From positions 1-5,097 of the forward strand of contig QNDJ01000166.1 of the NCBI GenBank assembly GCA_003644825.1: a stretch of 5,097 nt of DNA, in the 5' to 3' direction. Origin of the DNA: B21-G16 sp003644825 [NCBI: Candidatus Zhuqueibacterota bacterium]. Its GTDB lineage: Bacteria > SM23-31 > B21-G16. Shown here in pieces: positions 1 to 4,117 of the stretch. The notes beneath the pieces are model-generated. The model saw only the letters and a list, made by a program, of their open reading frames with translations. It was not told where the DNA came from and did no database searches. Within the stretch, counting starts at the first letter, position 1, and every line of letters starts with the position of its first letter. A program made the position numbers and the translations under genes.

Positions 1-531
1 CTTCTTTATCTGTTTACCAATTAGATTTGAAATTGTTTCTGGTATGTCTATATTTAGATAAAGTTTTGCCAAATCCACCTTTACTTCATTATTTTCATAA
101 TCAATCTCCAATGCGGAAAGCATTTTTAAATCTCGCATAAAAACATACTGATTGTAAGTGTCCTGGTATGGATTATCAAACAAATCTGAATCTTCTATTT
201 TACTTTCCTTAAAGTATCCTCGTATTGTTCAAGTTCGTAGTATTTGAAAAATCCGCCTGTATTGTCTTTGTTATATTTCTCTTTTACATCCTTTTCTTTA
301 GAAATACCAGACTTATCATAATCCAGAACTTCCTTCATTCTTGGCAAAATTATTATATTAAATTGTCCCCCTAAATTCTATATTAATCCATTTCCGCCCC
401 ATTTTATGAGCAACTGCGGCAGTTACTCTTTTGCCCGAAAAGAAATCCATAACTAAATTATCCTTATTATAACCTGTATGAATTATCCGTTATAACAATT
501 TTTCAGGTAATTGCGTGGGGAACTGTATTCC
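1..531 (-). pseudogene. Decayed C-terminal fragment of a type III-like (beta-class) DNA adenine methyltransferase (Mod)
   Basis: Three consecutive minus-strand reading frames join into one recognisable methyltransferase C-terminus. Frame 1 (531-361) reads GIQFPTQLPEKLL, a stop TAA at 492-490, then RIIHTGYNKDNLVMDFFSG and AAVAHKMGRKWINIE. These are the conserved TQ-P-E-LL and SAM-binding motif I regions. Frame 2 (about 371-195) reads GGQFNIIILPRMKEVL, then FFKYYELEQYEDTLRK, and ends at TAG 197-195. Frame 3 (195-1) reads EDSDLFDNPY, then QYVFMRDLKMLSALEIDY and KVDLAKLY, and stays open to the window edge. Removing one T near 373-375 and adding one base at 196/195 (restoring K-Y-E-D) would rejoin the frames. 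Motif I, usually F-x-G-S-G-T-T-A, is here FSGKRVTA, so a SAM-loop glycine is also lost. In this family the DPPY motif lies upstream of motif I; that part is missing because the oxidoreductase gene occupies the space. The family call is from remembered motifs. The product is almost certainly inactive. Confidence 0.85.
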
Positions 532-1336
532 CAAGTTCTTTACAATTAAAAACAGGACCATCAATACAAACATACTTGTTGCCTATTGCACAGTGACCGC
601 ATTTTCCGATACCGCATTTCATATATCGTTCGAGAGTAAAAATAACTTTTTCTTCTTTCAAACCCATTCTCAGCAGTTCATTAACTGTGGATTTTATCAT
701 AACTGGTGGACCACATATAAAAGCCCAGGTTTTCCCGGGGTCTATTTTAACCCGGGATAATAATGTTGTAACAACACCAACATTGCCTTTCCAGCCGTTA
801 TCAGCTTTATCTACAGTTTCGAGGAATTCAACCGCCGGGTCTTCTCTCCAGGCTGATAACTGGCGTTTGTATAACCTATCTTCAGGAGTTTTCGCACCGT
901 AAAGTATAATACAACGACCCGATTTCTCCTTCCTATTCAGGAGATATAGAATTAACGACCTCAACGGGGCTAATCCAATACCACCACCAATTATTAGAAT
1001 ATTATCTTCCTTGATTTCTTCAAAAGGAAAATGGTTTCCAAAAGGTCCCCTTATTCCAATTTCATCTCCTTCCTTTTTTAAATACAGAGCATTCGATACA
1101 TAACCAACTGCCCTGACAGTAATATCAAAATTTTCTCTATTATCAGGATTTGATGAAATACTTACTGGAATTTCTCCATATCCAAAAACAGAAACTTCTA
1201 TGAACTGACCTGGATAGAATTTAAAACCGTTCCGTTCTTCTCTGGATTTTAATCGAAGGGTAAAAGTTTTTACATCCGGTGTTTCCTTTATTATATTCTC
1301 AATTACTACAGGTTCGGGGATGTAAATATTTTTCAA
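503..1336 (-). CDS. FAD/NAD(P)H-dependent oxidoreductase with [2Fe-2S] cluster, hydrogenase/sulfite-reductase gamma-subunit type (HydG/AsrB-like)
   Basis: A 277-residue cytoplasmic electron-transfer protein of the ferredoxin-NADP+ reductase superfamily. Such subunits pass electrons between NAD(P)H and a partner such as a NiFe (sulf)hydrogenase or anaerobic sulfite reductase. The N-terminal flavin-binding barrel has YPGQFIEVSV (41-50) and the FAD-contact loop GEIPVSISS. That loop lacks the Arg of classical RxYS reductases, as is usual for this subfamily. The nucleotide-binding domain follows, with GGGIGLAPLRS and later ICGPPVMIK. The C-terminal cluster ligands are C241, C246, C249 and C257 (Cx4Cx2Cx7C). 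All cofactor motifs are intact. The start is TTG: the frame closes at TAA 1348-1346, no other start fits, and AAGGT lies 6 bases upstream. It follows the UVR-motif gene by 17 bases. The last eight or nine residues derive from methyltransferase-remnant DNA read out of frame. No catalytic partner gene is in the window, so the exact physiological role is open. Confidence 0.9.
   Translation of the reverse strand: MKNIYIPEPVVIENIIKETPDVKTFTLRLKSREERNGFKFYPGQFIEVSVFGYGEIPVSISSNPDNRENFDITVRAVGYVSNALYLKKEGDEIGIRGPFGNHFPFEEIKEDNILIIGGGIGLAPLRSLILYLLNRKEKSGRCIILYGAKTPEDRLYKRQLSAWREDPAVEFLETVDKADNGWKGNVGVVTTLLSRVKIDPGKTWAFICGPPVMIKSTVNELLRMGLKEEKVIFTLERYMKCGIGKCGHCAIGNKYVCIDGPVFNCKELGNTVPHAIT
527..547 (-). 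other. Breakpoint between the oxidoreductase gene and the methyltransferase remnant
   Basis: Oxidoreductase similarity is clear to G-P-V-F (residues 260-263, ending at 548). Methyltransferase similarity is clear from G-I-Q-F-P-T-Q (starting at 531). The join must lie between these points. From about 531 down to 503 the same DNA is read in two frames. One gives the methyltransferase residues through P-E. The other gives the oxidoreductase tail NTVPHAIT and its TGA stop, which is made from the T of the CCT (Pro) codon plus GA of GAA (Glu). No insertion-sequence ends or target-site duplication are visible at the join. Confidence 0.7.
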
Positions 1337-1353: not shown

Positions 1354-2112
1354 TCAGTTTTTATTACCTAAACTTTTCAATTTATCTCTGATTTCAGCAG
1401 CCCTTTCGAATTCCTGATTTTTTATTGCTTTTTTCAGTTCAATTTCGAGCCTTTGCTTTTTGGACATAGGAATCATTTCTTCCAGACTCTTTTTCCAGTT
1501 TCTTAGAAAAGTAAGTTCTGGGCTCAGTTCTTCCTCTTCTTCCTGGTCATATTCCCGGTAAAACCTTTTTATTTCTCTAATTCCCTCATCAACAATTCTC
1601 AGAGCCTGTTTATATTCCTTTTTTTCCATATATATGGTAGCTCTTGCCCTGGTATTCATCATCTTTATATAAGGGAAATACTGAGCAAATAACCATTTTT
1701 CCTCATCAGATATTGCATATCTATTTGTAAATTCAATTAATCGAAGGTTGCGTTCAGTATCCCTTCTTGCTAATTCATATTCTTCCAGCTGGAAAAAACT
1801 CAGGTATCTATAATAATATTGAATAGCTTCCCTCTGTAGTTTAAGGCAATCATCTATGTTAAGGTGAAAGTTCTCATCCGAACCATATTTTTCTATATGT
1901 TCTTTAACCAGATATTTGTAATGTTCCAGAAGGGACTCCCTGCCATAAGGTCTCTTACCATCTGGTCTGCCAGAAATTTCCATCTGCAATAACCCGAGGT
2001 CAAGACGCATTTGAATCTTTTCTTTTCCATCGCTACCAATAATCTTTCTGACCGTTACTTCTCCCGGAATAAATTCCCACCCTTCTATTATGTCTCTAAT
2101 ATCTTTGCTCAA
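1354..2112 (-). CDS. UvrB/UvrC-motif (UVR) protein of unknown function
   Basis: A 252-residue soluble protein with no signal peptide or membrane segment. Residues about 1-60 form a conserved-looking region: an R-D-I-I-E-G-W start, then a strand-rich part with MRLDLGLLQMEISGRPDGKRP. This resembles the N-terminus of UvrB/UvrC-motif proteins I recall from planctomycetes and candidate phyla. Residues about 85-205 are highly charged and helical, with repeated Y/E/R-rich helices that could be TPR-like, and an acidic run EEEEE near 192-196. The last 35 residues are a UVR motif: LKKAIKNQEFERAAEIRDKL, the helical hairpin by which UvrB and UvrC interact, also found in ClpC and McsA. None of the nuclease or helicase domains of UvrABC is present, so a repair role should not be assumed; a protein-protein adaptor is the safer inference. 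It starts at TTG behind a near-perfect Shine-Dalgarno sequence. Confidence 0.85.
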   Translation of the reverse strand: MSKDIRDIIEGWEFIPGEVTVRKIIGSDGKEKIQMRLDLGLLQMEISGRPDGKRPYGRESLLEHYKYLVKEHIEKYGSDENFHLNIDDCLKLQREAIQYYYRYLSFFQLEEYELARRDTERNLRLIEFTNRYAISDEEKWLFAQYFPYIKMMNTRARATIYMEKKEYKQALRIVDEGIREIKRFYREYDQEEEEELSPELTFLRNWKKSLEEMIPMSKKQRLEIELKKAIKNQEFERAAEIRDKLKSLGNKN

Positions 2113-2161: not shown

Positions 2162-4117
2162 TTACTTTAAGTATAACATTTTTTTTGAAATAAAGAAATT
2201 ATTTCCTTTCAAACATACTATGTAAATTCCTGAAGATACCTTTACCCCTTTTTCATTGGTTCCAATCCATGTCAGCCGATAGTTACCTTTACTCATAAAA
2301 CCTGAAGATAAAGTCTTTACTAATTTCCCCGTTATATCATAAATTTTCAGTTCAAAATATCCATCATTACCAATTATGAATGAAATGTGTGTCTGCTCAT
2401 TAAAAGGATTAGGAAAATTCTGCATCAGACAATTTTCACAGGTAAAAGCAAGCTTTGTAACTTTTTTCAAAATATCTTCATTTTTATCAAGAATAACATC
2501 CCTTGTTAAAAAATTCAAATCGACTTCAAACTGAAACTCTTCAACAATATCATCTATATATATGTTTTCAGTAATTTCTTTATTTTCACCGATCAGAGTA
2601 ATATCAACAGGTATTTTAAAAATTGGCGCTTCAAATTGAACCTGTTTTATTATAACAGATACGATATTTTTTCTTTTTTCTATATTCTTTTTTACAGACC
2701 ATTCAACAGAGAGGATGGGGTATCCTTTTCCAAAAATCCACTGATTAAAAAACCAGTCTAAATCTTTGCCGTATACTTCCTCACAAACGTTAATAAAATC
2801 TCTGGTATCAGCATTCTTGTAAGCAAATCTGCTGGCATAGGTTTTTATTATTTTCCACCATTTTTCATCTCCTGTAATGCGTCTTAACATATGTAATACC
2901 AGAGCACCTTTCTGATATTCATTAGCCCCAAAAAGATACCCGGGTGGGGGATTAAAAATAGCATAACTTCTCTTTTTCTCTTCCTCAAAAACCCTGTATT
3001 TAAAATTTTTCAATCTCTTTTTAAACTGCTTTTCACCATACTTATACTCAGTATAAAGAGCATCAAAGTAGGTTGCAAAGCTTTCATTCAGCCATATATG
3101 TTCCCAGTCGAGCAGAGTAACCATATCTCCAAACCACATATGAGCAAGTTCGTGAGCAAAACCACTTTCTGCCCCTTTGTTTCCTCTAATCCATCCTCTA
3201 TTAATGGTGGTCATTGTCTGGTGTTCCATACCACCAAAAGAAAAAGGTTGTATTGCAGCCATACCATATTTCTCAAAAGGGTAAGGATGAATATGGGTCG
3301 AATAGAAATTCATCATATCAACTACATTCTCAAAATCTATCCTTGCCTTTTCAATATCTTCCGGGAAAACATAATATTTCACCTCTATACTATCATTTTC
3401 TGGAGTAATATAATAATCTGAAAAGGTTGTATATTTTCCCATTGTAACACAGAAAAGGTAAGTAGCCATCGGATAACTCTCAGACCAGTGATATGTAACA
3501 GTATTATCAATACTGTTATACGATGTTTCTACCAGAAGCCCATTTGAAGCAACTTTGTATTCATCAGGGACAGTAACAATAATATCGGCTGTAGCCTTAT
3601 CCCAGGGTTCATCATAGCAGGGAAACCAGAACCGGGCATTAGATGGCTCAGACATCGTATACGCACACCTATCATAGTAGAAAAATCCTATATTCTGGCG
3701 TCCTTCATAACTCTCATAATCGATTTCCACAGAAAAGGTGTCCCCTGTGTTGTAAGTTTCAGGTAAGATTATACTGATTCCATCGCCTTCGTCAATAAAA
3801 TTTACCTGGTTATTATTTACATTAACAGCTTTTATTATAAGGTCAACAGAATGAAAAAATAAAGAATCAATACCATTTTCTCTTGATTCACATTTAATTA
3901 TTACTTTACCCGAAAAATATGTTGACTCGAGAGGGAAGTTCAATTCAAGGTTATAATGGAGCACATCAAAGGAATGAAACCTTTCAGCCTGGTAGGTACT
4001 CTGCTTTAAAAATCCACCTTTGTTTTCAAATTGCTCAGGGGTATAAAATAATTCCTGAGGAAAAATGTAACCCACCCAAAGTAAAATCGCAATTAAAATG
4101 ATAAACTTTCTAATCAT
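2162..4117 (-). CDS. Secreted M1-family zinc aminopeptidase with C-terminal type IX secretion sorting domain
   Basis: A 651-residue exported metallopeptidase predicted to remove N-terminal residues from peptides outside the cytoplasm. Residues 1-20 are a signal peptide (MIRKF, a hydrophobic core, then FPQE). The M1 N-terminal beta domain covers about 45-235. The substrate-binding GGMEH (295-299) stands for the usual GxMEN. The zinc site is H322-E323-L-A-H326 plus E345 in NESF, with the exact 18-residue spacing. Y401 in YQKGALVLHML is the likely catalytic tyrosine. A beta-sandwich spans about 470-555. Residues 565-651 form a sorting domain: QNFPNPFN, then LKIYDITGKLVKTL, and VSSGIY near the end, typical of Por/T9SS cargo. 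A C-E-N-C pair (560-563) precedes it. All catalytic residues are present. The ATG is the only reasonable start, but it lacks a Shine-Dalgarno sequence (T-rich upstream). It lies 49 bases after the creatininase-like gene, suggesting joint peptide use. Confidence 0.93.
   Translation of the reverse strand: MIRKFIILIAILLWVGYIFPQELFYTPEQFENKGGFLKQSTYQAERFHSFDVLHYNLELNFPLESTYFSGKVIIKCESRENGIDSLFFHSVDLIIKAVNVNNNQVNFIDEGDGISIILPETYNTGDTFSVEIDYESYEGRQNIGFFYYDRCAYTMSEPSNARFWFPCYDEPWDKATADIIVTVPDEYKVASNGLLVETSYNSIDNTVTYHWSESYPMATYLFCVTMGKYTTFSDYYITPENDSIEVKYYVFPEDIEKARIDFENVVDMMNFYSTHIHPYPFEKYGMAAIQPFSFGGMEHQTMTTINRGWIRGNKGAESGFAHELAHMWFGDMVTLLDWEHIWLNESFATYFDALYTEYKYGEKQFKKRLKNFKYRVFEEEKKRSYAIFNPPPGYLFGANEYQKGALVLHMLRRITGDEKWWKIIKTYASRFAYKNADTRDFINVCEEVYGKDLDWFFNQWIFGKGYPILSVEWSVKKNIEKRKNIVSVIIKQVQFEAPIFKIPVDITLIGENKEITENIYIDDIVEEFQFEVDLNFLTRDVILDKNEDILKKVTKLAFTCENCLMQNFPNPFNEQTHISFIIGNDGYFELKIYDITGKLVKTLSSGFMSKGNYRLTWIGTNEKGVKVSSGIYIVCLKGNNFFISKKMLYLK

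What the first reader, a model, noticed from the sequence alone, without database searches (positions are those of the whole stretch)
503..547. Oxidoreductase C-terminus and stop codon supplied by out-of-frame methyltransferase DNA
The codons giving NTVPHAIT and the TGA of the oxidoreductase also encode, one frame away, I-Q-F-P-T-Q-L-P-E of the methyltransferase remnant. An illegitimate junction therefore replaced the native 3' end and a new stop was captured by chance. All four cluster cysteines lie upstream of the join, so the enzyme may still fold. This is a small, clean example of a gene tail made from foreign sequence.
Basis: partly seen in the sequence, partly recalled or inferred. Interest (0 to 1): 0.6.

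Follow-up and report, generated by a model that had tools for sequence, protein, structure and literature searches.

The report
Enzyme gene tail made from methyltransferase
In this draft bacterial genome an electron-transfer enzyme gene seems to have lost its own last few codons and now ends in a short out-of-frame piece of a broken DNA-methyltransferase gene, a neat but small example of a kind of gene fusion that is already described.

Summary
On the minus strand a HydG/AsrB-like FAD/NAD(P) oxidoreductase (277 aa, 1336-503) fits its relatives through residue 268 (base 533), where the Pfam iron-sulfur domain also ends. [quoted passage not shown] So VPHAIT and the TGA are Mod-type DNA; the codons for G269-T271 cannot be assigned. 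The overlapping Mod word alone (QFPTQLPE) is equalled by 1 of 200,000 random 24-mers and 2 of 1,023,126 words in loci L008-L081; the best 3' end among 56 oxidoreductase relatives scores 3.3 against 21.5 bits. The four cluster cysteines are intact. The Mod piece is dead. Catching a stop this early is ordinary: 10 of 28 Mods would give one. Best explanation: a deletion joined two genes lying on one strand. No sister genome is held and the window is a 5,097-base contig of a 493-contig draft, so a misassembly is not excluded. Out-of-frame deletion-born fusions are already in print (PMC12803068, abstract and passages seen): a new member of a known kind.

The parts
503..1336 (-). ORF of the HydG/AsrB-like FAD/NAD(P) oxidoreductase, 277 aa, TTG start as listed, stop TGA 505-503
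533..1336 (-). native part of the oxidoreductase, residues 1-268, with the three Pfam domains and the four cysteines
526..532 (-). join zone of unassigned origin
   Evidence: between the native-like end at 533 and the Mod homology from 525
503..525 (-). Mod-type DNA that encodes VPHAIT and the stop of the oxidoreductase, and QFPTQLPE in the Mod frame
1..525 (-). remnant of a type III Mod gene, about residues 607-775 of the 806-aa Mod of G266, running off the contig; stop at 492-490, another frame in 374-198, SAM motif broken (FSGKRV)
1354..2112 (-). preceding gene with a UVR motif (context only)

Best explanation
A gene for the NAD(P)/FAD electron-transfer subunit of a hydrogenase- or formate-dehydrogenase-type complex was joined, after its 268th codon, to the 3' part of a type III mod gene on the same strand. 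The simplest event is one deletion that removed the last six or so native codons, whatever lay between the genes, and about the first 600 codons of mod (inferred). Translation now runs for six to nine codons in a wrong frame of mod and stops at a TGA that lies across a Pro-Glu codon pair of Mod (read from the sequence). The FAD, NAD(P) and iron-sulfur parts are untouched, so the enzyme probably still folds with a changed and probably non-essential tail (inferred). The Mod piece has lost its 5' part and SAM motif and has decayed (read from the sequence).
For: Mod homology starts at base 525 in one frame only and exceeds chance for the overlapping word alone. Among the 3' ends of 56 oxidoreductase relatives, three frames plus 60 bases of flank, the best Mod-motif score is 3.3 against 21.5 bits. 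Tail positions 8-12 score as low in 1 of 56 relatives, positions 1-7 are normal. The Pfam Fe-S domain ends at residue 268, at the join. The Mod piece is on the same strand, 5' truncated, with stops and frame changes, as a deletion followed by decay would leave it. In G002 and G004 the gene lies in an operon with a 4Fe-4S subunit, a hydrogenase maturation protease and hydrogenase-4-like subunits; G000 has no match to the 4Fe-4S subunit, which the same search finds in G002 and G004, so the locus looks rearranged. The same genome holds another rearranged type III piece (contig C74).
Against: No relative shows the state before the join and no second contig spans it, so the deletion is inferred. 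If one residue may be skipped, the tail fits the native pattern somewhat: 1,419 of 20,000 random tails do as well, and 54 of 56 native tails do at least as well. The Mod word has Leu and, at its first column, Gln, both with the score of residues not seen in the 28 Mods (-2.7 each), while many native oxidoreductase tails read LPE. The draft is 83.6% complete, so absences may be gaps.
Confidence: 0.77

Rival explanations
1. Misassembly: reads of two places, or of two organisms, were joined in this metagenomic contig, and the oxidoreductase has a normal tail in the cell.
For: Short contig (5,097 bases) of a 493-contig draft; the join has no second witness: 0 exact matches in viral contigs, and the plasmid search matched only the Mod side. 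PMC4494051 reports a putative gene fusion that proved to be replicated assembly errors (abstract).
Against: The window searched against its own genome gave no second match around the join, so no repeat there is seen to mislead the assembler. GC does not break sharply at the join. Both sides lie on the same strand and the same genome holds type III system pieces elsewhere.
Confidence: 0.13
2. Frameshift in a native tail: the oxidoreductase's own end read ...KEL...LPEKLL-stop, a small insertion or base error shifted it, and the Mod remnant begins only after that stop.
For: The other frame reads LPEKLL and a stop at 492-490, like relatives ending LPEK or LPEKVV. Joined to KEL with one gap it beats all but 617 of 20,000 random tails.
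Against: It leaves FPTQ, the exact spacing LLxRII and the 11-column score of 21.5 bits to chance; the best of 56 relatives' 3' ends reaches 3.3. It also needs a tail of 20 residues after DGP against 13-18 in 56 relatives.
Confidence: 0.06
3. Insertion instead of deletion: a mod fragment was inserted into, or next to, the oxidoreductase 3' end, and the native end was lost or lies beyond the contig.
For: The type III genes of this family are met on a plasmid and in viral contigs, so they move.
Against: No transposon end, inverted repeat or convincing direct repeat at the join; one 18-base repeat at 83% (137-154, 564-581) looks like chance. The remnant runs off the contig, so its far side cannot be seen.
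Confidence: 0.04

Closest known systems
Deletion-born fusion genes (Kaul et al. 2026 preprint, PMC12803068; abstract and passages seen)
   Same: Start of one gene joined by a deletion to a fragment of another; [quoted passage not shown]
   Different: There both fusions of that section lost their ancestors' catalytic motifs; here the N-terminal partner keeps its whole domain set and only its tail is exchanged. The deletion is inferred here, not seen between sister genomes.
[quoted passage not shown] coli pangenome (Watson et al. 2022; title seen in the reference list of PMC12803068; the paper is not held)
   Same: Gene sequence reused in another reading frame (from the title).
   Different: One case of six to nine codons, not a gene family.
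Recent de novo protein C-termini (Andreatta et al. 2015, PMC4494051; abstract seen)
   Same: A known protein gains a short new C-terminus from DNA that did not encode it in that frame.
   Different: There a stop codon is lost and non-coding flank is read; here the 3' end was replaced by another gene's DNA.
Type III restriction-modification Mod (PADLOC PDLC03638 type)
   Same: The remnant is the C-terminal part of such a Mod, 59-64% identical to those of G266 and G117.
   Different: The first 600 or so residues are missing, the SAM motif is broken, and there are stops and frame changes.

Membership tests
Hydrogenase-gamma/AsrB-like FAD/NAD(P) oxidoreductase | FAD-binding, NAD-binding and C-terminal DHODB_Fe-S_bind domains in this order | tested here: met
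   Pfam, all three over cut-off
Hydrogenase-gamma/AsrB-like FAD/NAD(P) oxidoreductase | four cluster cysteines | tested here: met
   C241, C246, C249, C257, invariant in the 40-sequence alignment
AsrB, HydG or ShyC proper | score over the NCBIfam equivalog cut-off | tested here: not met
   225.3, 187.4 and 198.3 bits; cut-offs 288.6, 650 and 600
Subunit of a hydrogenase/formate-dehydrogenase-type complex | 4Fe-4S partner subunit encoded in the same genome | tested here: not met
   no match in the 83.6% complete draft G000, matches in G002 and G004 in the same search
Type III R-M Mod methyltransferase | FxGxG SAM motif | tested here: not met
   reads FSGKRV where the best relatives have FLGSGT
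Type III R-M Mod methyltransferase | one open frame that includes the N-terminal catalytic part | tested here: not met
   only residues 607-775 of 806, with stops and two frame changes: a remnant
Deletion-born out-of-frame fusion gene | 5' part of one gene, fragment of another read in a non-native frame to a new stop | tested here: met
Deletion-born out-of-frame fusion gene | undeleted arrangement seen in a relative | tested here: inconclusive
   five same-class genomes held; two (G002, G004) carry a 62% relative, in another operon

The most novel reading that the evidence does not exclude
The borrowed tail was kept because it does something: the oxidoreductase, orphaned from its hydrogenase or formate-dehydrogenase partners, uses its new C-terminus to work alone or with other partners.
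Probability: 0.04. Interest if true: 0.45.

Novelty: new member of a known kind. Interest (0 to 1): 0.24.

Why it matters
It is a readable case of how one break can exchange a gene's end: the last catalytic domain stops at the join, and the new stop codon comes free from another gene's wrong frame. Routine annotation would hide it, since the ORF is intact and of ordinary length. It changes no general view: such fusions are already described, and AT-rich DNA supplies a stop soon in most frames.

Tried and rejected
A solved relative exists (9nez_C, sulfhydrogenase 1 gamma); its tail was not compared in three dimensions.

Repeats at the join: only one imperfect 18-base direct repeat (137-154 and 564-581, 83%) brackets it, taken as chance. 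Composition: GC is 30% in 1-400 and 37% in 401-800, inside the 28.5-40.3% seen over the window, so no sharp break. Donor in the same genome: the Mod-like frame on contig C25 is only 31% identical over 45 residues, so not the source; C55, C343 and C62 gave nothing convincing; C167 was fetched but not examined, nor was the G050 stretch.

Contig C74 as the continuation of this window: the window ends at Mod residue 775 and C74 holds a Mod end from residue 773, but there is no exact overlap, so the link is not claimed. Paper searches gave the precedents cited; I saw listings except where said, and did not search for this locus by name.

Limits of the counts: the 56 relatives are L008-L027 and L043-L078; the more distant matches L028-L042 were left out beforehand. 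The 28 Mods of the profile were found with a query that held the remnant itself and were kept if their match began at query residue 8 or earlier, which favours the motif. The hydrogenase-4 D-like subunit search of G000 had no positive control. The 25 invariant columns include the window and so are circular; one search repeats the count on the other 39.

Full report
What was claimed.

The two parents. The window is the whole of contig C166 of a draft genome (G000, 493 contigs, 83.6% complete). On the minus strand, ORF 1336-503 encodes a 277-aa oxidoreductase with FAD, NAD and DHODB-type Fe-S domains. In NCBIfam it is nearest to cytochrome-c3 hydrogenase gamma and AsrB, but under the cut-offs of all the families shown (25 of 31). 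Its best relatives among 60 held genomes are 62% identical (G002, G004). Downstream on the same strand, 525-1, lies the 3' part of a type III mod gene: PADLOC type III methyltransferase profile 615-792 of 816 at 183 bits, 59-64% identical to Mods of G266 and G117. Those are open frames of 806 and 823 aa, each with a frame of about 980 aa nearby on the same strand; that of G266 is a Res by Pfam.

The overlap. The frames were written out and the codon positions. A profile from 28 Mods matches the remnant from Q at 525-523, 69.8 bits, in that frame only. The overlapping word QFPTQLPE has a score equalled by 1 of 200,000 random 24-mers of the window's composition and by 2 of 1,023,126 words in six frames of loci L008-L081. 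To test whether oxidoreductase ends resemble the motif anyway, the 3' ends of 56 relatives with 60 bases of flank were scored in three frames: best 3.3 bits against 21.5 here.

Where the join lies. After DGP the first seven residues (VFNCKEL) fit the family (17 of 56 relatives score lower); the next five (GNTVP) score as low in 1 of 56. The Pfam Fe-S domain ends at residue 268, base 533. So oxidoreductase DNA runs to 533, Mod homology starts at 525, and the seven bases between are of unknown origin.

Results that fit less well. The Mod frame has Leu and Gln at two columns where they are not seen in the 28 Mods (-2.7 bits each), and it reads LPEKLL-stop, like some native oxidoreductase tails. 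With one residue skipped, 1,419 of 20,000 random tails fit the native pattern as well as the actual tail, and 617 of 20,000 as well as the other frame. A frameshifted native tail is therefore kept as a rival, at low odds, because it leaves FPTQ and the exact register to chance.

State of the two genes. The oxidoreductase keeps 25 of 26 columns that are invariant in 39 relatives, and 46 of 47 columns conserved at 90% or more; the exception in both is T81 to S. Its four cluster cysteines are 241, 246, 249 and 257. The Mod remnant lacks its first 600 or so residues, has a stop at 492-490, lies in another frame over 374-198, and has a broken SAM motif. In the same relative frame a stop as early as this one occurs in 10 of 28 Mods (read from the list; two of the 28 have none in 100 codons), and base composition alone gives 45% within eight codons. 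Its capture needs no special cause.

Context. In G004 the gene follows a molybdopterin oxidoreductase gene and a 4Fe-4S subunit gene and precedes a HycI-type protease and hydrogenase-4-like membrane subunits. G002 looks the same where its contig reaches, with a small extra frame before the protease. G000 has no match to the 4Fe-4S subunit, while G002 and G004 do in the same search, and none to the hydrogenase-4 D-like subunit (no control). Here the gene follows a UVR-motif gene whose relative in G004 has other neighbours. So the gene looks orphaned from its complex, with the reservation that the draft is incomplete.

Mechanism and standing. One deletion between two genes on one strand explains what is seen; a misassembly, a frameshifted tail or an inserted fragment are less likely. 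Deletion-born fusions, one with an out-of-frame partner, are described in PMC12803068 (abstract and passages), and new C-termini from non-coding DNA in PMC4494051 (abstract). This case belongs to that known kind. The boldest reading left open, a tail kept for a function, has no evidence for it here.

Noticed in passing
L144 (G000:C74) 326-634: In the same genome an N-terminal piece of a type III Res gene, with one TAG inside, runs in the same frame into the last 30 or so residues of a Mod: a second chimeric remnant. Its Mod part starts at residue 773, close to residue 775 where this window's contig ends.
   Followed up: partly
L144 619-4500: A nucleotidyltransferase and a HEPN gene (PF18765/PF01909 and PF05168) lie between that Mod end and a 994-aa frame with the ResIII domain.
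   Followed up: partly
L131 3130-4455: In G266 an AlbA_2/HATPase_c_4 protein sits between Mod and Res; a piece of a relative opens contig C74 of G000 and another lies at the end of contig C264.
   Followed up: partly
window 1354-2112 (-): A 252-aa protein in which Pfam sees only a C-terminal UVR motif. Of 20 relatives searched, G004 has a 55% identical full-length relative, three have short matches near the motif, 16 none.
   Followed up: partly
window 2162-4117 (-): M1 peptidase with a C-terminal tail that matches FlgD_ig and Por_Secre_tail.
   Followed up: no
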